From assembly GCA_029891345.1 (NCBI GenBank), contig CM056993.1, positions 278,148,016 through 278,212,015 of the forward strand: a stretch of 64,000 bases of DNA, written 5' to 3'. This document shows positions 19,606-64,000 of the stretch, one piece after another. The translations under genes were made by a program, and so were the position numbers. This stretch comes from Dryococelus australis. Taxonomy: Eukaryota; Arthropoda; Insecta; Phasmatodea; Phasmatidae. The notes under the pieces are model-generated. The model ran no database searches. It was not told the origin of the DNA and saw only the letters and a program-made list of their open reading frames with translations. Each line of letters starts with the position of its first letter. Positions within the stretch are counted from its first letter, which is position 1.

Positions 19606-19716
19606 ATGTTGACAGGAGTTAAACACGTTATTTTAGTTCTCTCTGGTAAAGGGGGTGTTGGGAAATCAACTGTTAGCACACAGCTGGCACTGGCGCTGAG
19701 AGATTCCGGTCACAAG
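19606..19716 (+). CDS. NUBP2: NUBP2 exon 1
   Basis: 37 codons, [20 protein letters not shown] onward to GHK. It carries the P-loop. Donor AAG|GTACGG, phase 0. Confidence 0.95.
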
Positions 19717-22700
19717 GTACGGAGGATAGAGCAAAGTGGTGTATTTATGTACTCAGTGTTTGCAAGTAATAGTGTGATAATCTTACTTTCTTAATTTATT
19801 CTTGCATGTTTATTTATTTTTCCATAGGGTGTAATAAATAACCCCTCCCTCCTCTCACAGCTGTCAAGTAAGAAGGGGGCAGAAATATTCCTGAGAGACA
19901 GGTTTAAAAAATGGTCTATGGTGGAGGGTGTAGAGGGAGTTAGAAGATTAATGGAGGTTATGTTGGAGAAATTTGTGCCAATGAAAAGGTTACGGACTGG
20001 GGGAGATCCCCCATATTATGGACAGGAGATTTTGAAAATGAAGAAGTGCAGAAAATTACATGCCAAGTGGAGAAATGAAGGGATGATAAGATCTAAAGAA
20101 ATTATGAAACAAATGGGTAGGGAGCTTGAAAGGAAGATCAAACAGGCAAAGAATGTATTTCTGGGGAACATGGTGGAAGAAAGAAAAGGCAAGGAATGGG
20201 GGAAATTGTTTAGATATGTTAGGCGGTTAAGGGGAGGAGAGGAAGGGATGGTAGGCATGTGACAAATGACCAAGAAAAATCGGAGATGCTGCAAGGACAG
20301 TACTTGTCAGTGTTTGAGGCAAAGGAGGGTTGGAATAGGGGAGCAAACAGGGTTTGGAGGGTGTTTAGTGAGTTTAAGATGAGGGAGTGGGAGATAGAAA
20401 AGGTAATTAGGGGTTTGGAGAGCAGTAAGGCAGGGGATCCAGATGGGATAGGAAACGCAGCACTAAAGATTGGTGGCAGGGAGTTGGCGAAATATTTAGA
20501 AGTGCTGTTTAAAAAGTCCTTAGGAGAGGGTAAGTTACCACAAGATTGGAAGGATGCTATGGTGGTACCTATGCACAAGCAGGGAGAGGATAGGGGGAGG
20601 CCTGGCAAACAGGTGGAGGAATTGGTATCTGCGAGAGGGGTTGGTAAGTTCAGGAAGGGAGTGGAAAAGGAGTTAGTTGGGTGAAGGAGAGGTGAGAGAG
20701 CTCGCCACATTTTAATTCCCCAACCTAATTTTCTTTTTTGTAAACATTGTTGACTATTTTTATGTAACATAATTTCTTTTCCTTCTTTTTGTAAAATTTT
20801 ATCAGCATTATGTCTAGATTCTAAATCTTTATGGTCTCTATATGCAATATCGTAATATTTGCATGCTTCATCTAATTTATTTATTCCTGTTTCTCCTCTT
20901 TCTATTATTTAGTTTGATTTTGTGAATGGTCCACAATAATTATAACCTGGCAAATGCATTTTGGGTAAATTTAAATAGTTTAATGCCTAGTTTATAATGC
21001 CTTTACCATGATGTTCAGAATTCCAAAATGAGTGTGGAATTACGTTTAAAACTCTTGTAAGATAAGGAATTCCTTTTGGAATATTAATAACAAAATCAGA
21101 AAAACTTATTGTTTAATATATTCATTATACTTACTTTTTCATTGTAATAATTGTTATTTTCAGCATTTTCTTTGCAGTGAATAACTAACAATCTATCGAT
21201 TAATTTTCTAACATCGTCCATCCAAATATGTTCTTTTGGTAAACTATTCTATTTTTTTTAATACCTTCTCCAGATTTAGGAGTTCTTGGAGAAATCTTTT
21301 TTTCTGGTGTGTTTGGTGCTGATTTTGAATGTGATTCTTTTATATAGTTATGATAAATTGGTCCAATTATATTTTCGTATTTCCAACCACCACTTGAAGC
21401 TACCTTTTTATTAGGATTATATTGTTTGTTGGTTATTGGTTGTTTAAACAATTTTTGCATAATTTTCATAATCCTCATCATCAAATTTGGAAACACCTGC
21501 TTTATGTGGCAAATCTGGTAATGGAATAATACCCATTTGCTCTTCCACATTAGGAGATTTTTGTTCTTAGAATAATTCTCTTTCGAATGATGTTTCTTCT
21601 GGTGTTGGCGGCGGATAATCTAAATTTTTTACTGCTACAGGAACTAGTGTTTTTATTAAATTTTTATTTTCTTCACTTTTTCTACTTTTTTATCAGTATT
21701 TCGTAATTCATCAATGAATGGTTGCTCTTTCTTCTTATTTTTTTCATATTCTTTTTCATGATGCTTTTTATATTTTTTATATCTTTCAATAAGAATTTAA
21801 CTCTAGAAACTCCCTTCGATTCTGCCATTTATATATAAATTTTTTACTTATAAATGAGTTGTAAAAATATTGAGAGTTTTGAGAGGCAAACTTTTCCTCC
21901 AACTGATCTAACTAGAGGGAATTGAAATGTTTACAATAATAAAATCAAATTTGATATTCCTATAGGAGATGGTTTTTCTTTTCTAAATGACGTTTATGTT
22001 TATGAGCAATTTAGTTTACTAAAGAGAGATAAAGTTTGAGCTGAGGCAAACTATGGTGAATCAGATAATTTTGATGTTTGTTCAATCTTTTTTCCTTTCC
22101 AATTTTATAGAGTAGAAATTTCAAAACATGAAAATATTATTGAAGCTGTTGATAATCCAACATCAACAATGATGAATGCTTTATTAAGTTCAAAATTATT
22201 TAGAATTTACAGGTGTTGATACTCTATATCAAGATAAATTTGTTTCTAGTAATATAAGAAGAGGTTAAAACTGTTTCTAGTAATAAAACAAATGAAATAA
22301 TCTATCCTCTTAGATATCTGTTTGGTTTTATTCATGATAGCAATGAAGTTTATTATAGGCTATTCACGGTAAAGTTAGCACTTTTTAAGGCCCTTCCAAA
22401 AGGCTTTAACCGCTAATAAAAATATGTTTTTGCAGCATCAGGCATTAAATTTTGAGGGTGGGGAAATGTATATACCGTATTAATTCATCACAAAGCAATG
22501 TTTATATTAAAAAGCTGCAGGAAGATGGAAATAGGCTGAAAGGAAGACTTAAGAAGTGCCTTAAAAAGTGCTCACTTTACAGTGAACAGCCTATAGAAAG
22601 GCGGCTATAAAATTGCCTTTTTTGTAATTCATCTGGTAACAACTGTTAATTTCTTTATGAAACTTTTGATAAAGTTATGAAATATTTTCCTGATCCTGGT

Positions 22701-25700
22701 AAAATTGTTATTGAAAAATTATAAATGTTGAATATGAATCTAACACCGCTGTTGCAATTAATGAAAAAATATACAAAGATCCAAAAATACCTATTAGTTT
22801 TGATTATCAGCAATTTTTAGAATAAGAAGTTCCTAAAGGAACAACTGATTTTAACTTTGATACAAAAGATCGGTGTAATAATTTACAATTTGATATGCCC
22901 AATTTTGTAATTGTAGGCTCATATATACATACATACACTCGCAATTAGGCTACCGCCCGGTGGCGAGCTCTCTCAACTATCCTTCACCCAACCAACTCCT
23001 TTTCCACTCCCTTCCTGAATTTATCAACCCCTCTCACAGATACCAATTCCTCCCTCAACACATTCCACTCCTTCACAGACCTCACAGGCATGGACTGCCT
23101 ACCCCGCTCCGTTCTCCTCCACACCCTCTGAAGCTTCTCACTGTTGTTTCCTCTTCCTCTAAACACCCCCTTACTTAGCTTGCAGTGTAGCCCTCCCCAT
23201 CCTCCCTCTTCATGTACCAGCCTGTACATCCTGACTAACCGTTCAACTTTCCTCCTATCCTTCAATGAGCTCCACCCCATTTCTTTCATCATCACTGATG
23301 GCCTATAGTTCCCTTCTTCCTCATCATCCTGCCCTTGCCTTCTCCACCTACCCTTCACCCATCTTGCTGCCTTTCTCTGCACCTTATCCAGTTCTCGCAC
23401 CTCCACCTCCACATACGGGTCCCATACTGCTGCAGCATATTCTAACAGTGGCCGTACCATTGTGCCATACACCTTCTCTTTCACCTCACAGCTGACTCCA
23501 TTCAGCACCCTTCCCTGCATACCCAGAGCCCTTCTTCCCTATGCTACCACCCTCTCTACCTGTTTTTTCCACCTGAGGTCTCCCTGCAGTACAATCCCTA
23601 GATACTTATATTCTGCTGCTTCTCCTATCTCTTGTCCCTCCCATCTGTACATGTCTCTGCTTATCATCTTCTTCCTTGTGAACCTCAATACCTTAAGTTT
23701 TTCTTACATTTATCCTCATTTTATTTTTTCTGGTCCACAACCATATCTTATCAATGTCCGCTTGCAAATTTCTGCCCCCCTCTCCCACCTCAGCATATTC
23801 CACACAATCAGATTTTTCCTCTAATCCCCAAACCCATGTCATTAACCATTATGGTAAATAACAAAGGACCCAGCACGCTTCCCTGTGGTACCCCTGACGT
23901 AACCTCCTCTTCCTCCGATATTGCCTCCCCCATTTTCACCCTCTGCCTTCGCCCCCTGAGAAAGTCCCCTATCCATTCCACTACCCTCCAGTCTGGTATC
24001 AGCGCCTCCACTTTCCTCATCAATGTTCCATGGGGCACCTTATCGAATGCCTTCTCAAAATCTATGAAGCAGGCCCCCACCTGCTTCCCCTCATCAACTA
24101 CCTGCACCAGATCCTCTAATAACCCAGCCAGCTGAGTCTCACATGAGTAACCCCTCCTGAAACCATGCTGCGACTCCTCCAACCAATTCGTATTGTTCAT
24201 TACCCTCACCACATACTGCACCACCAGCCTCTCCATTACTTTTCCTGTACTTGATGTGAGACTCACCGGTCTGTAGCTGCCAGGCCTCCCCCTATCCTCT
24301 CCCTGCTTGTGTATAGGTACCACCATAGCATCCTTCCAATCTTGTGGTAACTTACCCTCTCCTAAGGACTTTTTAAACAGCACTTCTAAATATTTCGCCA
24401 ACTCCTTGCCACCAAACTTTAATGCTGCGTTTCCTATCCCATCTGGTCCCCCTGCCTTACTGCTCTCCAAACCCCTAATTACCTTTTCTATCCCCCACTC
24501 CCTCATCTTAAACTCACTATACACCCCCCGAACACTGTTTGTCCCCCTATCCCAACCCTCCTTTGCCTCAAACACTGACAAGTACTGTCCTTGCAGCATC
24601 TCCGATTTTTCTTGGTCATTTGTCGCATGCCTACCATCCCTTCCTGTTAGCAGAGTGATCCCTTCCTCTCCTCCCCTTAACCGCCTAACATATCTAAACA
24701 ATTTCCCCCATTCCTTGCCTTTTCTTTCTTCCACCATGTTCCCCAGAAATACATTCTTTGCCTGTTTGATCTTCCTTTCAAGCTCCCTACCCTTTTGTTT
24801 CATAATTTCTTTAGATCTTATCATCCCTTCATTTCTCCACTTGGCATGTAATTTTCTGCACTTCTTCTTCATTTTCAAAATCTCCTGTCCATAATATGGG
24901 GGATCTCCCCCAGTCCGTAACCTATTCAATGGCACAAATTTCTCCAACATAACCTCCAATAATCTTCTAACTCCCTCCACAACCCCTCTACACGCTCTTC
25001 CATATACCATTTTTTAAACCTGTCTCTCAGGAAGATTTCTGCCCCCATCTTGTCGCCTCTCCCATACTGCCACACCAACCTTTCTGCCATTTGCACTTCT
25101 CTCATCCTGCCAATCCCAATTTGTACAACCGGAATATGATGGTCGCTTATACCATCCAATACTATTGCACCAACTACAGCATTCCTAGGTCTGACCAACA
25201 CCACATCCAGCACTGACCCACCCTCCTCATTCCATCTCGTAGGTGTTGCTATTATCTGGACCAATCCTCTGTTGGCTAACTGTGCTGCCATTCTCTGCAT
25301 TATGCTACCCATTCCTTCTGCACCCTCTACCCATTTCACCCCTGGCATATTCAAATCCCCTGCTACAACAATTTTCTATTTAATAGAAAAAATGTGCTGA
25401 ATAGCATAAACATGCTGCTATGTTTGATCATTGTAGTGTAAGAAATATTTATGGTAAAAATGGTAGAAATGAATTTTTTCCTAACAAAAACTGGACTCTA
25501 GACATTGAAAATGGTGTTTATCTTAAACAATTTCTTGCTTATAATAATTTTAGAAATTCAAAAACCAAACTAGATACTGGCTATAGAAATAATGAACTTT
25601 ATTATAAACCAACGGTAATCTTAGATGGTGGTATTAATTACTATTCATTTTGGGGACGAAGACCTTTATATGTTATTGATTGTTCTTACAGAAATTCAAC

Positions 25701-28700
25701 TGTTAACGAAAAAACAAATATAAAAATTAGTGTTGATTTTAATGAAAAGGTTGAAGAAGCAGGTACCATTTGTAATGTTGTTTTAATTAGTCGAAGGAAT
25801 CTTAAGATTATTTGAAAGAAAGAATTACTGAAGATTTATAAATTTTTAATATTATTAAATGGAGGAATCAACAAATGGTTTCAATAGTTTAAAACAATAT
25901 TTTAGACTCATAGTTGGTTGGTTACATTTAAAAGTTGTACAAATTTTTAAAAATATTGATGAATTATTTGATCAAATAAAACATTATTTCAATAATTCTA
26001 AATAAGTTTTTTCTTTCTCTTAATAAATTTATTTTCTTTATAAATAAAATAAAAATGCCTGTGTTACCTTGCAGTTTGACGAACATTTTAAAAGGCGATA
26101 GTGGGGCAAAAATTCCTTCCTATAGATTAGATAATGCATCTGAAGATCTTAAAAATATGGTTCGCAAATTTCATTCAAATTTACAAAGCTTACAATTATC
26201 ACTCTTATTAGAAATCATTGACGATAAATATGAGGTTTGAGATATTGGTGAAAATAGAGCAAATAGAAGTTTTTGAAAAAGTAGTAGAGCTTTGAATTTA
26301 AATTATTAATTGTCGTTTCAAAATTTTTACTTGATTTTATCTTATTTTGCTCTTTTTTCTCTTAAATTCTCTTGATTTAGATTGCTCGCTTGCAAAATTA
26401 ATGTTTTCTATAAAACATGAAAATTAGTGGCAGAGACAGTGTGCCTGGAATACCATACCACATTGGTACCCTTGCTCAACAGTTTGGACTAACTGATCTG
26501 TGACACAATCATCCTTGAGCTAATCCGTGGCAGCCATGCCGCGAATGGGATAAAAATTTGGACTCTGGAAATAGTGCAAACAAACTTACCAATGTAAACA
26601 ATGGCTAGGATAGCAGTACAACCAACAGTGCAAATAGCAAGAACGTAAAGTGGGATAGGAGTCAACCACCGCCAATGTAGTGTCGTTATTGTGACACCTA
26701 AGTGTACCATTGGCATGGCAAGTGCCCAGAGTAACCCTACATTAAGCCAGCCACAAATAATGCAAGCAGCAACCCGGGAAACGGGAAGCAGGGGTAAGGG
26801 AGCCAGATGCCCCCGACACCCCAGTCCCGGAGGAAAAGACCAACTTGATGCTGCAACAAGCACCAGTAAATTAGGTCAGTAGTAGTCATTCACAGTTCAT
26901 CCACATTTTAGTGTTCGTTAACGGCCATCATAGCTACACATTAATAGACACAGCCGCATCTCATAATTTTTTACAAACTCATTTTGTGCATCCAGCCACT
27001 CATGTAATCTGTTTAGCTACCATTCAGCACACCAGTACCGCACTAGGTCAAGCAACAGTAACAGTTTGCGTGCGTAACCTAGAGACCATTACTACAGCAG
27101 TTATTACACCAGACATTAGGCAAGCTGCTATCCTGGGTGTACTGTGGCTGACAGACGGAAACACCATAATCGAATCCGCGGCATGTCACATCCACTTTGG
27201 CTTAAAGGAGCAATGCACAGTGTACAACCTTGAACAGCGACCAGCCAATAACATACCAGCTGTTTCACTAACGGACTTTGACAACAATGTACCACCTGAA
27301 TACAAGGCAGCTTATCAGCAGCTCCTCGACGTACGCCAGGACGTCTTTGCAACACACAACACCCTTTGTTGGACCATTGTGGCAGAACATGAAATACCGT
27401 TAGTACAAGACGGGTCTATATACACATCACCGTGTAGTTATTTACCACACCAGGCACGCATCATCAAACAAATACAGGAAACGTTGACTGACGGTGTTAT
27501 TGAACCCACCAACAGCGATTGCAATTACACTCGCACCTAAGAATGATGGCACGTGAAAGTTTTGTGTGAAATTTCTGCCAGTGAAACAGGTGACATGCAG
27601 TCCATTACTGCTGTACATCAGCGTGAAGGACCCACTCAGTTCTCACTGCGAGCTATGGTCATGTCGTCCCTTGGCCTTAAGAGCAGATATTGGCAAGTTC
27701 CCATCAAACTGGAGGACCATGGCAAGACAGCTTTCATGGTCCCTGATGGCAGACATTTCATTTTGTGCCATGCCGTTTGGGCTAAAGTGTGCACCGGTCA
27801 CCTTCCAGGCGAGGATAGTCAGGATGCTGGACGGCCTCATCGGGGAGTTCACACTCGCCTACCTGGGTGATGTGGTGATATGGTCGGCAAGCTGGGAGGA
27901 GCATCTTCACCACCTGTCACTTGTGCTTGAGAGGTTAGCCATCAACAGCCTCATGTGTAACTTCCAAGTGCCACTTGGGAAAGACCAGCATCAATTTTCT
28001 GATGCACGTCATCGATGAAGAAGTCAACAAATCAAATCCCATACGGCTGCGGCTGATCGATGAGGACCCACCATCACGTACGCGCAAACAGCTCCAGAAG
28101 TTATTCGGACTAATAAACTGGCTCTGGGAGCACATCCAAGACTTTGCTGTCATCACCACACCACCGACTGACCTGCTGTCAATGCCACGACGTTTTCAGT
28201 GGGACAGCCCTGCCGACGATACCTTCAGAGAAATTAAGGCGCGTTTCAGATCATGCCCCACCTTGGCGAGGTACAACCTTACCAAACACCTGTAACTGCA
28301 AACCGAAGCCAACCAAGAGGGATTCGGTGTAGCGCTTTACCAGTTTGGTGACAACAGTAAATGTCATGTCATCAACTTTGCCAGTTCCAAGTTCGAACCG
28401 ACCGAGTGGAGGTATGACATTGAGCTTGAGTGTTTGGCCATGGTATGGTCCATCAAAAATTACTGGGCATACTTGGAGTACCACGCGGTTCATACTCTGT
28501 ACAGACAATCGCTGCCTGGTCTGGCTCCACAACATGCGTGAGGCATTCAGCAAGCTGACCCAGTGGGCATTGCTTCGCCAGGCCTATGACTTCGTCATAG
28601 AGCATGTCCCAGGCAGTGAAAACCAGTTGACAGATGCCCTGCCCAGGTCACCAGGCACCGACGACGTGGTACATGACGACGCAGAGTGGGAGGAGATACT

Positions 28701-31700
28701 ACCACCAACCACGCGAGAACTCCTGAGTGAGGTAAGCCTGCAGCAAATCATTGTCACCAACAATGACTTCACTGCAAGCAATTTGTACTATGATGTAGTA
28801 CAAGCGCAACTGGGATGTGCACTTACTCAGGGACAAAAAGACTATTGCGTGCAGGGAGCACCATCCCAATATTAGAGGGCAATTGTTGGAGATAGCACAT
28901 CAGAGCAATGTGACAGGACACCTGGGGATGGAACAGATAATCCAAAATGTAGGGGAGCAAAACTGTACCAAGTGCAAACAATTTAAAGCCAGGTGTGCTG
29001 ACAGGGTGCAGTAGAAGCAACAACCCCGACTGCTGACGAAGCCTTTTAAGATGATGTGCCATGACCTCATGAGACCTTACTCCAGGTCCTCGGAGAGCAA
29101 GCGGTTCATTATAGTGGTCACTGACAATTTCTCAAGGTGGGTCGAGGCCTACCCAGTGAGCAGCCCGTGAGTTAAGAGTATTGCCAAAGTCTTGCAAACA
29201 GACTTTTTCCCCATGTCGGGATACCCGTAAAATTTGCTCACTGACAACGGGACACAATTTACTGGCAGAGATGGAGGGAATTGTGCACCCTTTGGGGAGT
29301 TCGGCATTTGAAAAGACAGATTTACCATCCATGTGCAAATCCCATGGAGCACCTCAACCAGGAATTAAAGATGCAGCTGCAGCTCTGTGTGGGTGATCAG
29401 CACACTATGTGGGCCGACCATCTGCCCACCACCCTCATCACCCTCTGTTGGCATGTCAGTGCAGCAACTGGCAAGTTACCTGCCAATGTACTACTGCGCA
29501 ACAACCTCACCCTGCCGGGTGAATTTGACTGCCATCGGGTAGCTGAAAGTGGGACCCAGTTAGCAGTGACCCGACGTGAGCGGCGTCGGAGAGACACCAG
29601 GAGATGCGTGAGCATCAGGGCAACTACAGTGCATGGTGGCTGCAGAGCACCACGTGGTCACTGCCACAGTTGCAAGTGGGTCGCAAGTATATGTCTGTGC
29701 TCACCCGCAGTCCGCAGATATATCTACGTGGATTTCTTGGCCAAGAGGAGCATGCTGCCCGAGATAACGAGGAGCTTAGGACATACCATTTACCTGGCCC
29801 GGCTTGTGCGGAAGACCATTAGGGTACATTGGGATGACCAACAGCTGGTGACGTTGCTGATTACGCCGCACCAGGTGCCCTATGATGGTGACCCCGCTGT
29901 CAAGCTCTCCGAAGCAGCTGCAGGGGAGGAAGGTGCATCAGAACCTCCGTCAGAGGAGGCTCTAGCAGGGACAGATGACTCAATGACGCTCGGCGCACCA
30001 GTGCCCTACAGAGACCGTGGGAGTAGAAGTCCAGGCAGCACCGACGGTGCGGCACCACCTAGTATCGCCTTCACACCACTAGCACCACTCCAGGCGCACA
30101 TACAGCAAGAAGTACCACAACCTGCATGCATCACGGCACCTGGCATGACGCCCACCGCAACAGAGGTGTCCTCCCCTCCGTTCTTCGTGCTCTCCAGGTG
30201 ACACCCCGGGACTCTTGCCGCTTCGTCGACTGCGTCAGGGTGGTTACGGGGGGTGTCCATGCATATATAAAGAGCCCATTAAGAATGGGGACAGCCAAAG
30301 ATGCCACTATGCAAATTGTGCAGTTCATTTTTATAAAGTGCACATATTTTCATCTCACCTGTTTCACCTACATTTCACACCATTTCAGTGCTCATTTTGT
30401 TTTATTATGTCAAGTTTAATCCAGTGTTTTTATGTTTGATGTAATTTCATTGCAAGTGTTCATTGTTTCTCATGTTAATAAATTGTTGGCGAGCAGAAAG
30501 TAGTGCCTGGCGAGTCGCATGCCACCTCCTCCACGCCACGTGTGCTCACCAGAACTAGTTGCAGCTCAGCATTCGAAGGAGTCGATTGCATCGTGTGTGC
30601 ACACCAGGTGGCATTCAACTGTTTGCAACATCAATCATTTGCAACATCAATCATGTAGAGTTAACTAGTCCTACATACAGTAACCTTTTGCTTTCTCGTT
30701 CCCAGTGTTCAAATTGCCTGGGGAAGCTTAACTTTTACAACTAAGTGCATTTTTGGCTTCGTGCCATTTTCACAGTGTAGCCTTTCTGGCAGGCCATAGC
30801 GCAGAATTCCGTGTAAGTGTTGAATTTTTCAAAGTAGGCGAGATCTCTGGGTTCAATAATCTAATTAAATATTATTTTTGTTCTAGTTTGAGATTGAGGA
30901 ATGAAACTTCAATATCCAGAGTCAGTCTGCAAGGGAAGTAAGCATCATAGTGGTAAGCCCTGGTGTCGCGGAGGTCGAACACAAATCCTTTTAAAATGCA
31001 CCAGCTGTGGGGTCCTCCACGTTGCGAATATGCTTACTGCTTGGGTAACTTTGGGGGTGTTCTTTCGGGCCTATGAGCTGAGGATTTCAACCCCTATGAC
31101 TAACTTCACATTTAATGTTCTGCAGTATGCAGACCTGGTTTTAGTGAAAGAGGTGGCCTTGAAATATCACGAAGCCAGTGTCGCAAGGACCATACCCAGG
31201 AGTTTAATCTCGCTTAAGCAGGATACCTGAGTAGAGAGTGGGCCGGGTAGGTTTTTGTGTGGATACAAAGTCAAGTGATACTGAGGTTACGGTTCTCCGA
31301 TGTATTACCTGCTGGCTGAGCGGCAGCGACACCCTCCTCCTCTCCGGCTGGCTTGATGAGGCGGTCGGCAGCCGGACAGCGGCCAACATTGGTTGCGTAG
31401 AAGTGACGCTAGTGCTACAGAGAAGCTCCTGGGGTATTTGTGGAGGGATTGTTGTGTATGATTCAGGTAGTAAGGTAGGATCAAGTCGTAAGACAGCATT
31501 ATCAAAATGTACCACTAACAAATGTTCTAGTTGGGAGCGTTCTGATGCTCTTGTAGGCGGTAAAAATAACGTATTCTCTCCTACTACCTCAGAGGTAGGT
31601 AAATTAGTTATGTCTCTCTCCAACTCTTTTAGAATCAATTTGAACTTTAATTTATTGCCTCCTTTATTGGAGTAAGGCATAAGGCCAAAATATATGAAAC

Positions 31701-60624: not shown

Positions 60625-60649
60625 GAGTAGATGTATAAGGCAGATTCTG

Positions 60650-60975
60650 GACTACCCCACATTTTCATAGAAAAATCAAGCAATTTGAGCCCAAAATCAA
60701 GGTTTTTTTGTTTGGTCCACAATCATGGTTTGAAATTTAAGAACTTATTCTAAAAAACAACCAAATTTACCCCAAAATAAGTAAATTTACCACTTTTTTC
60801 AATAATTGCGTGCAGGCTTTGAGCCACCTTAAAAATACTAAATTTTACGCTAAAATCAAGCAAATTTCTCGCTTTTCAGGCAAAATTTTCATGTTTTCTA
60901 GAAATAGTAATTTTGCAAGCGAGCAAACAAATTTAAGAGAAAATCAAGCAAAATAAGCAAAAATCAAATGAAAAT
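60650..60975 (+). repeat. Terminal (TIR-like) region with AAAATCAAG iterons, copy 2
   Basis: The core 60,880-60,975 matches 26,425-26,320 inverted. AAAATCAAG occurs at 60,672, 60,693 (AAAATCAAGG), 60,852 and 60,940. The exact outer edge is not determined. Confidence 0.6.
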
Positions 60976-61027
60976 ATAAAAAAAAAATAAAATTGACACA
61001 AACAAAAAATGTTATACTCGAAGCTAT

Positions 61028-61265
61028 ACTAATTTTTTAAACACTTCTTATATTTCCTCTAGATAGTCACCCATTTCTCGAAGTTCATATTTTTCGTTAA
61101 TATTTTCTAAAATGGTTAATTGTAAATTTAGTAAATTCAAATTAAATGTGTGAACTAAATTTTTAAGACCTTCAGATGCTTTATCTAATTATAAGATGGG
61201 GGACTTGTGCCATTGTCACCTTTTAAAATATTGGACAAACTGCAAGGAAAAATAGGCGAAGCCAT
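61028..61265 (-). pseudogene. Conserved terminal gene P, copy 2
   Basis: The start ATG (61,265) is preceded by CTTTATAAATAAAC, as in copy 1. N-terminal PCSLSNILKGDNG matches copy 1 closely. A one-base loss near 61,195 shifts the frame before ASEGLKNLV, which continues to KYELREMGDY and a TAA. It reads toward the element end, as in copy 1. Function unknown. Confidence 0.6.
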
Positions 61266-61334
61266 GTTTATTTATAAAGAAACAAATTTGTTAAAAAGAA
61301 TAAAATTTTTTAAATAATGCTTTAAAAAATGTGC

Positions 61335-61499
61335 TTAAGAGAATTCTAGATCATGGACAAATTTTCCATTTTTCATTTCTTTTACGCCTTTATACATTAT
61401 AAAAACCTCCTCCTCGTTTATTAGTTTCAAAGAATTTTTATCAAGTATCTTGACATGGCGTTCTGGCAATGAAATTTTAAATTTGTAGCAGCAAGCCAT
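61335..61499 (-). CDS. 54-codon ORF of the Polinton-like element
   Basis: Intact ORF beginning MACCYKFKISLPERHVKIL and ending HDLEFS, upstream of and collinear with gene P. CAAATAAATGG precedes the start. No known domain was recognised; the mixed charge and beta-rich look suggest a small soluble protein. Confidence 0.5.
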   Translation of the reverse strand: MACCYKFKISLPERHVKILDKNSLKLINEEEVFIMYKGVKEMKNGKFVHDLEFS

Positions 61500-61538: not shown

Positions 61539-61665
61539 TTCATACAAATTGTTCAGCTTCTTGAGCAGAGATTCCAATTTTTGTGTTATTTACAAAGAAA
61601 CAAATTACTAAAGAAAAATATTTTTTTTTCATTCTATCAATAAATTAATTTTCTAAATAAATACA

Positions 61666-61887
61666 ATGGAAACTAATACCAAATCTAAGCAATGTAAAAA
61701 ATGTGGCGAAGTATTAAATATAGAAAGTTTTCACATATATTTATAATCAACAGCTCAAAAACCATAAAAATCTAAATCCCACAACACACCAATAGATATT
61801 CTAAATGAAATTCAAAAGGAGAATTATCCAACAAAAATATGCACAGTTTCTAATGAGAATAAATCTATCATAGAATTATCGTCTTAA
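61666..61887 (+). pseudogene. Small Cys-pair ORF, two in-frame stops
   Basis: It starts after TTCTAAATAAATACA. A CKKCGEVLNIESF segment has one CxxC pair like half a zinc ribbon. In-frame TAA at 61,744 and 61,765 break it, yet the same frame runs on to a TAA at 61,887 with plausible sequence. Probably a decayed gene of about 73 codons. Confidence 0.45.
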
Positions 61888-62005: not shown

Positions 62006-62374
62006 ATGGAGTCTTCGAAGATAAATCATGTGTTGAACGAAAAGACAGTGAGAGAGTTAAGAATTATAGGTAGAAGATTTGAAATAAAATATCCGCACAG
62101 GGTACGGAAAGCTGATTTAATTGCAGCTATTATACCATTTATTATAAATCAGCAAAGAAAAGGGAATTTGAAAAATTTAGCCTTTTCAAATTACACTATA
62201 AAATATACAAAATCTAAAAAACAATTAGAAGAAGTTTTCCCATTTTCTACTAATGTATTTCTAGAACCTATAGATAAAAGTAAGTGGGCAATTGAATGGA
62301 GAACAAAGAATAATTTTACAAATTTACCTTTATCTGATGCTGTCAACGAATTATATAAACAAGATAAAAACTAA
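62006..62374 (+). CDS. 122-codon ORF with SAP-like N-terminus
   Basis: Intact ORF preceded by CCTTTAAATAAACAAAT. Residues 12-40 (KTVRELRIIGRRFEIKYPHR then VRKADLIAAI) resemble the SAP helix-turn-helix motif found in DNA-binding and virus proteins. The second half has KSKWAIEWRT and an acidic end. It probably belongs to the Polinton-like element; role unknown, possibly DNA binding. Confidence 0.5.
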   Translation: MESSKINHVLNEKTVRELRIIGRRFEIKYPHRVRKADLIAAIIPFIINQQRKGNLKNLAFSNYTIKYTKSKKQLEEVFPFSTNVFLEPIDKSKWAIEWRTKNNFTNLPLSDAVNELYKQDKN

Positions 62375-62876: not shown

Positions 62877-63710
62877 TCAATTTATAGAATAAGGAATATA
62901 TTCAAATCTCAATAATTCTTCACAATTTGGGTGTATATCTCCAGTTCTAAGCAATTGTCGTTGAACATATTTTCTGTGAGCTCTTATAACATAATAATCA
63001 AATTCAAAATCATTATCAAATAATTTTAGAAGAATAAAAGTTGGATTTAAATTTTGGTTTTGTGTTCGTGGTACAACATGAGGGGCCATATCTCTAATTA
63101 CCTAATTTTGATTTATTCCTTCTACAGCTCTATGAACTGTTTCCATTAAATTTTCAATATGACCATCTTTAATTTTATTTATTTCTTTTAAATTTTCAAT
63201 GTAATCATCTTTAATTTTATTTATATCTTTTAAATGATTAATTTTAATTTCTATAATTTTATTTGTGTGCTCTAATTGTTTTAATTTTGTTTTTAATTTA
63301 ATTACTATATGTAATTTATATTTGCCATATTTACGAATTGATGGTAAAACTTATTTTGTAACTCATTTTTTAAATTGTTTAGCTTCTTGTTTTTTAGACA
63401 ACAAAATTAAAGAATATAAGCCAACTTCATTTCTATAAATTGTTGATTTTTTATTACCAAGTAACCCATCTTTCAAAGACGGGTTCAGACTTTTAAATTT
63501 ACACTTATCTTTGTCTGAAATATGCTTATAAACTTTGTGTATTTGTCGATATTCTAATATTTCAGCAATATCTTTGGCTTTAAACCAAGGATTATTATTA
63601 TCATCAAAAACAATATTTATCTTTTTATTTTTAAAAATTAAATTATTTAAATCATATAATGTAGCTAATTCTGTATTCTTCTTTAGTTGTTTTTCTAGTG
63701 ATTCGGCCAT
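62877..63710 (-). pseudogene. BRO-N domain protein with DUF3627-like C-terminus
   Basis: The frame starts at 63,710. Residues about 28-115 form a BRO-N (baculovirus repeated ORF) domain: INIVFDDNNNPWFKAKDIAEI, KVYKHISDKDKCKF and NEVGLYSLILLSKKQEAKQFKK. A coiled-coil linker follows with a tandem KEINKIKD-type repeat. The end (62,877-63,089; FILLKLFDND, YYVIRAHRKYVQRQL) resembles DUF3627, a usual partner of BRO-N/KilA-N. BRO proteins bind nucleic acid and are common in insect DNA viruses. In-frame TGA (63,363), TAA (about 63,351) and TAG (about 63,103) interrupt about 277 codons, so it is probably dead, although the N-terminal 115 residues are intact. Confidence 0.8.
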
Positions 63711-64000
63711 TTTGTATGTGGGGAAATATGTTTATATATATATATATATTCTTTTTTAATAAAAAAAATAAAAAATTGATATAGACCAGATTCATAGATA
63801 AATATAGTAAAATTTTAAACTTCTTTAATTTCCAGAACAATGTTGATATCAGAACCATCAATATCAATTAATTTACCATTTTTGTCTCTAATTTATAAAC
63901 AATTGCTCATTATTAATTTAATACAAAATTGGATATGGGGGCACATAAATTATATAATCTCTAAAACCAAACATGGTTTTTGGTGGAAAACTAGCAATTA
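63711..64000. other. BRO upstream region to window end
   Basis: A (TA)n run at 63,733-63,750 and A-runs lie upstream of the BRO start. Another minus-strand reading may begin beyond the window. Confidence 0.4.

What the first reader, a model, noticed from the sequence alone, without database searches (positions are those of the whole stretch)
26055..26425. Two Polinton-like copies share an end sequence and an adjacent small conserved gene (P)
The block 26,055-26,425 (gene P reading toward the element end, then about 90 bp of terminal sequence) has a mirror-image counterpart at 61,265-60,880. Both the DNA of the ends and the predicted peptides align, and both genes have the same CTTTATAAATAAA leader. 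A gene next to or inside the terminal repeat, kept in two separate insertions, suggests a real function of an undescribed family. I do not recognise the protein.
Basis: partly seen in the sequence, partly recalled or inferred. Interest (0 to 1): 0.75.

Follow-up and report, generated by a model that had tools for sequence, protein, structure and literature searches.

The report
Movable end gene of Maverick elements
The two matching blocks are real: they carry a small gene of unknown function from virus-like Maverick (Polinton) elements, which lies just inside the end repeat at opposite ends in two lineages, in a slot that in other copies is empty or holds a different gene.

Summary
The blocks align (73.9% over 459 bp), far above shuffles. 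They belong to Polinton/Maverick-like elements with ~380-bp TIRs and 6-bp target duplications (5/6 identical in 4 of 4). The right element ends at 60626; the left is cut at 26425. P is a gene of ~82 codons, broken in both window copies. Its frame shows purifying selection (dN/dS 0.48 between families; 1.09 and 0.76 in shifted frames). The new point is placement. In family A (window left) P lies between the capsid-like gene and the TIR; in family B (window right) at the opposite end. Empty ends run straight into the TIR, or carry another gene, G. Not all P copies are terminal: 14 of 40 matches in the B search stop before the TIR, and the 4 read have P internally. Accessory regions at Maverick ends are in print (PMC8097293); the P family and its change of ends look new. 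P's function is unknown.

The parts
26055..26240 (+). P gene, family A copy, cut short by an in-frame stop (61 aa; open frames of 81-82 codons in L006, L016, L017, of which only L017 keeps the ATG)
25981..26303 (+). P cassette (leader + P) between the 48-aa ORF and the TIR
26304..26425 (+). inner ~122 bp of the terminal inverted repeat; the rest (about 256 bp in most other copies) is missing because other DNA begins at 26426
25860..26005 (+). 48-aa ORF between the capsid-like gene and P
25405..25815 (+). C-terminal part of a capsid-like (MCP-like) gene; named by eye, no Pfam or PDB match
20709..22919 (.). inner part of the left element (PLA2-domain gene and start of the capsid-like gene), split from the rest by non-LTR retrotransposon insertions
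20780..20908 (-). phospholipase-A2-like domain piece (PF08398 E 3.3e-5)
60626..60984 (+). terminal inverted repeat of the right element; terminus 5'-AGTAGATGTATAA at 60626
61040..61265 (-). P gene, family B copy, broken by a frameshift
60985..61332 (-). P cassette of family B, between the TIR and the 54-aa ORF
61335..61499 (-). 54-aa ORF next to P in family B
61666..61746 (+). start of a zinc-ribbon-like gene (CxxC motif, by eye) with a P-like leader at 61624-61667
62006..62374 (+). Rho_N-domain gene of the right element
   Evidence: PF07498 E 3.2e-6
62880..63731 (-). BRO-type gene pieces (Bro-N at 63366-63731, DUF3627 at 62880-63101)

Best explanation
P is an accessory gene of a Polinton/Maverick-type virus-like element. 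It makes a protein of about 82 residues, mostly one long helix in the model, from its own AT-rich leader. In its commonest placements here it is read toward the near terminus and occupies a variable slot whose outer border is the inner edge of the TIR. Shown: P, a different gene G, or nothing fills this slot at the capsid-like end in different copies; P lies at that end in family A and at the zinc-ribbon end in family B; the P frame was under purifying selection while the elements were mobile. Inferred: P moved from one end to the other through the TIRs, by copying of an end sequence onto the opposite end (transient TIR expansion that includes P) followed by loss at one end, as in poxviruses. 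Also inferred, and weakest: P acts early as a small helper that binds a host or element protein, like other terminal accessory genes of linear DNA viruses.
For: Element type: 6-bp TSDs, 5 of 6 identical, in 4 of 4 elements with both termini in hand; inverted TIR at the far end; rve integrase PF00665 E 1.5e-11 and A32-type ATPase PF04665 E 2.6e-6, PLA2 domain PF08398 E 3.6e-14. P is coding: dN/dS A-B 0.48 pooled over 520 pairs (8x8 subset 0.43, 60 codon resamples 0.24-0.71), shifted frames 1.09 and 0.76; same protein and ends in A and B; no stop in the matched part in 78 of the 150 best-scoring copies (my hand count). Placement: family A has the capsid-like gene upstream of P in 18 of 19 and TIR sequence after it in 19 of 19 loci read; of 30 loci read from the B search, 26 have TIR after P and 25 of these the 54-aa region upstream. 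Unoccupied ends exist in numbers: 40 of 40 scored matches to a P-less family-A zinc-ribbon end cross the junction; of 40 scored matches to a P-less family-B capsid-like end 23 cross it, 16 over essentially the whole query, and 17 stop there. 5 of those 17 coincide with gene G, and the one read is G, not P. Pairs of ends within 25 kb and in element order: 4 A elements lack P at the zinc-ribbon end, 3 B elements lack it at the capsid-like end; no two of the 80 P blocks lie within 25 kb of each other.
Against: No element with P at both ends was found, so the proposed intermediate is not seen. P is not always terminal: 14 of 40 scored B-search matches stop before the TIR; in the 4 of these read (set C) P lies beside the zinc-ribbon gene, in the same sense, and one of the 4 A pairs (L011) has a second P inside. 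Simple end-to-end copying does not explain these. The queries were P-less, so their ranked lists favour P-less ends and give no frequencies. Only one G insert was read. Polymerase (best PF03175 E 0.0036), protease (PF00770 E 0.026) and capsid assignments are weak or by eye. dN/dS within A is 0.75, so the signal there is faint. The function of P has no direct evidence: no homologue or accepted domain match in the searches made.
Confidence: 0.62

Rival explanations
1. P was once inside a longer TIR, present at both ends of the ancestor; family A later lost the zinc-ribbon-end copy and family B the capsid-end copy. No movement is needed.
For: P abuts the inner TIR edge in both families; Maverick TIRs of 46-1,447 bp are in print (PMC8097293 section 7), so a ~730-bp TIR holding P is plausible.
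Against: No two P blocks within 25 kb of each other among the 80; losses would have to stop at the TIR edge twice.
Confidence: 0.3
2. The slot is filled by independent captures of small genes from other viruses or the host; P was captured more than once, at different places.
For: A different gene, G, sits at the same junction in other copies; P also occurs internally; BRO and Rho_N genes nearby are of kinds often exchanged among viruses (recalled).
Against: P cassettes of A and B share leader, protein and outer junction over 459 bp; no P source was found outside the elements, in libraries with few animal genomes.
Confidence: 0.15
3. P is not a functional gene; the block is conserved only as end DNA of a high-copy repeat.
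For: Copies are decaying: A-A pairs show near-equal change at the three codon positions (0.091, 0.085, 0.101) and dN/dS 0.75; both window copies are broken.
Against: Excess third-position differences between the window's right copy and the A majority (9 of 59, 10 of 58, 18 of 58 sites), dN/dS 0.48 A-B and 0.50 B-B, and the same protein recognisable end to end in A and B.
Confidence: 0.05

Closest known systems
[quoted passage not shown]
   Same: Integrase, A32-type ATPase, TIRs near 400 bp, 6-bp TSD, AGT-like termini, variable ORFs outside the core (PMC8097293, section 7 and passages read).
   Different: Here one accessory gene is followed across families and found at opposite ends, with the slot empty or holding another gene elsewhere; P itself has no match.
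Poxvirus ITR expansion / terminal transposition
   Same: A gene next to one terminal repeat is copied to the other end of a linear genome with loss at the target (mpox, PMC10230479, passages including the abstract read).
   Different: Different virus group, hairpin ends, large segments; here inferred from static copies only.
Adenovirus E1/E4 and African swine fever virus end regions (recalled, no call)
   Same: Variable small genes sit next to the inverted repeats of a linear DNA genome.
   Different: No sequence relation tested.

Membership tests
Polinton/Maverick | 6-bp target site duplication | tested here: met
   5 of 6 bases identical in 4 of 4 elements with both termini
Polinton/Maverick | terminal inverted repeats of tens to ~1,400 bp | tested here: met
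   inverted far-end repeat in 3 of 10 upstream pieces (L023, L024, L031) and in L062, one of 2 B pieces; about 380 bp
Polinton/Maverick | end motif (AGT)2//(ACT)2 or (AG)3//(CT)3 | tested here: inconclusive
   AGTAGA...TCTACT, 5 of 6 bases of the (AGT)2 type (motif from PMC8097293)
Polinton/Maverick | retrovirus-like integrase | tested here: met
   PF00665 E 1.5e-11 in L028; no rve match on 3 other integrase-like pieces; chromo-like tail PF00385 E 0.027, below cutoff
[quoted passage not shown]
   PF03175 E 0.0036, below cutoff, on one piece; other pieces tried gave no such hit
Polinton/Maverick | packaging ATPase | tested here: met
   PF04665 E 2.6e-6, above cutoff, in L028; E 7.6e-4, below cutoff, in L021
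Polinton/Maverick | adenovirus-type protease | tested here: inconclusive
   PF00770 E 0.026, below cutoff; two other pieces no hit
Polinton/Maverick | double jelly-roll major capsid protein | tested here: inconclusive
   named by eye; no Pfam match and no PDB sequence match; no structure made
Adintovirus proper | PolB with OTU-like N-terminus and Hexon recognisable by BLASTp to the reference clades (definition in PMC11071296, passages read) | not tested
   no adintovirus reference set was compared

The most novel reading that the evidence does not exclude
The inner TIR edge of these Mavericks is a loading site: a defined junction at either end into which small promoter-bearing genes are loaded, swapped and passed between the two ends through the TIRs, giving linear virus-like elements an integron-like cargo position.
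Probability: 0.25. Interest if true: 0.7.

Novelty: new variant of a known kind. Interest (0 to 1): 0.45.

Why it matters
Variable genes outside the Maverick core are known but, as far as I saw, not followed gene by gene. A genome with thousands of first-look candidates lets one watch a single accessory gene at different ends and the slot with different contents. That makes the question of how linear virus-like elements gain and relocate genes directly testable, and it defines a small protein family with a signature of selection.

Tried and rejected
Rejected: 26425 as an element end. P inside the TIR: far-end repeats in L024 and L031 match from block position 324-336 on, after P, and the P-less zinc-ribbon ends are unbroken. 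The idea that the capsid-end inserts were P: the one read is another gene. L011/L027 as proof of P at both ends: its second P lies inside a 19.6-kb stretch whose outer zinc-ribbon end lacks P; nested or rearranged, left open. Led nowhere: homologue searches for P and its neighbour; PDB and Pfam on P (best E 0.13, and 0.0028 to DUF2096_N, below cutoff); the Rho_N protein in viral contigs. The sequence libraries are mostly microbial or viral, so these negatives say little about animals. Host not identified; a cockroach was a guess from genome size and contig number, untested (one search gave nothing on it). For gene relocation between Maverick ends in print I saw nothing relevant in one aimed search listing or in the listings; that is no proof of absence.

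Full report
Observation. The two blocks are homologous: 25981-26425(+) and 60884-61332(-), 73.9% over 459 bp, E 3e-66. The score is 310 against a shuffle mean of 28 and maximum of 42 (200 shuffles), and the P part and the outer part are each significant alone. This is not AT-rich background.

The end is elsewhere. The whole genome (3.4 Gb, 646 contigs) was searched with the left block: 40 matches were scored of 4,164 first-look candidates, and 20 loci were read, the window's own among them. In 19 of 19 other copies TIR sequence continues past position 26425. A terminus ending CTACT is found in 14 of the 19, at 177-275 bp (mostly 249-275), a variant in 2 and none in 3. The right window copy has the terminus at 258 bp, that is at 60626. 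The left copy is cut at 26425; further right lie reverse-transcriptase pieces (27566-28015, PF00078 E 1.8e-7).

What the carriers are. Three of ten upstream pieces show the same repeat inverted at the far end. Four elements with both termini have 6-bp flanking duplications, each 5 of 6 identical. Pieces match a retrovirus-type integrase (E 1.5e-11) and an A32-type ATPase (E 2.6e-6) and a PLA2 domain (E 3.6e-14). Polymerase and protease matches are below cutoff. The capsid-like and zinc-ribbon-like genes are named by eye. The features fit Mavericks as described in PMC8097293 (section 7 and passages read): 6-bp TSD, TIR mean 402 bp, AGT-type ends, accessory regions beside the core.

P is a gene. 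Open frames of 81-82 codons stand in L006, L016 and L017, with the ATG kept in L017, and family B encodes a recognisable protein with the same ends. Pooled pairwise dN/dS is 0.48 between A and B, 0.50 within B and 0.75 within A; frames shifted by 1 and 2 bases give 1.09 and 0.76 for A-B. The A-B value on an 8x8 subset is 0.43, with 60 codon resamples spanning 0.24-0.71. Third positions carry the excess between the window's right copy and the A majority (18 of 58, against 9 of 59 and 10 of 58), but hardly within A (0.101 against 0.091 and 0.085). So P was selected while the elements were mobile, and the copies decay now. A protein search scored 150 copies of 4,379 candidates at 65-100% identity, 78 of them without a stop in the matched part by my hand count; the list is ranked by score, so biased to good copies. 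A second search with the C-type P scored 150 of 4,258.

P changes ends. In family A the order is capsid-like gene, 48-aa ORF, P, TIR (capsid-like gene in 18 of 19, TIR in 19 of 19 loci). In 26 of 30 loci read from the B search, P is followed by the TIR; of these 26, 25 have the 54-aa region upstream and 23 the zinc-ribbon region, in the opposite sense: this is family B. In the other 4 (set C) P and the 54-aa ORF lie ahead of the zinc-ribbon gene in the same sense, with no TIR after P. Ten further matches in that search, not read, also stop at about the same point, so 14 of 40 are not TIR-bound there. In the P tree B and C together split from A (support 0.97), and C lies among or just outside B with low resolution. 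The opposite ends lack P. In L062, the capsid-like end of a B element, the capsid-like gene runs into the TIR. With that as query, 23 of 40 scored matches cross the junction (16 over essentially the whole query) and 17 stop there. With a P-less family-A zinc-ribbon end as query, 40 of 40 cross. Both queries were P-less, so these lists show that such ends are numerous, not how frequent they are. Four A and three B pairs of ends lie within 25 kb in element order, and each lacks P at the other end; one of the A pairs (L011) has a second P inside.

The slot holds other genes. One of the 17 stopped ends was read: its ~350-bp insert is not P but another small ORF, G. 39 of 40 scored matches to it reach both junction sides, and 5 of the 17 stops coincide with G. 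At the junctions read, the outer border looks the same: the inner TIR edge (by eye).

Mechanism. The best reading is an accessory-gene slot at the inner TIR edge with exchange between ends through the repeats. The precedent is the mpox ITR expansion, in which genes beside one repeat are copied to the other end (PMC10230479, passages including the abstract read). Rivals are differential loss from a long TIR that held P, and separate captures. The internal P of set C and the lack of a P-at-both-ends copy count against the simplest version.

Function. P has no accepted match in Pfam, PHROGs, PDB, the protein collection or viral contigs. AlphaFold on the window's own 61-aa P with the two right-hand pieces (3 rows) gives a short helix at 6-12 and a long one at 22-59 (mean pLDDT 79, pTM 0.50; 94 and 96 for residues 31-40 and 41-50). 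I read it as a small helical helper protein; this is inference.

Noticed in passing
window 19870-20708 and 22960-25375: Two inverted copies of one non-LTR retrotransposon (92% alike over 774 bp, RVT_1 E 7e-24) split the left element.
   Followed up: partly
window 27566-28875: Reverse transcriptase piece (E 1.8e-7) and a weak RNase H match (E 0.0021, below cutoff) on the + strand, beyond the cut TIR; probably a retroelement, whose start was not mapped.
   Followed up: partly
window 19606-19794: Host-like exon of a NUBP-type iron-sulfur P-loop ATPase (PF10609 E 8.9e-12) beside the left element.
   Followed up: no
G000 C4:67764839 and C4:67779592: Two same-strand P copies with identical scores 14.75 kb apart: a possible head-to-tail tandem.
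   Followed up: no
L064:136-303: Gene G, which takes P's place at the capsid-like end in other copies, ends in a Cys-rich tail (CDLDCCGGWDCG); its search had 1,793 first-look candidates.
   Followed up: partly
G000 C3:291825759 and C3:291836334: A P copy and a G slot about 10 kb apart on opposite strands: possibly one element with G at the capsid-like end and P elsewhere.
   Followed up: no
window 62880-63731 and L021:1-2805: The right element has BRO-type pieces and, beyond the window, an ORF with a weak A32-type ATPase match (E 7.6e-4) and protease- and minor-capsid-like ORFs named by eye, before other DNA begins.
   Followed up: partly
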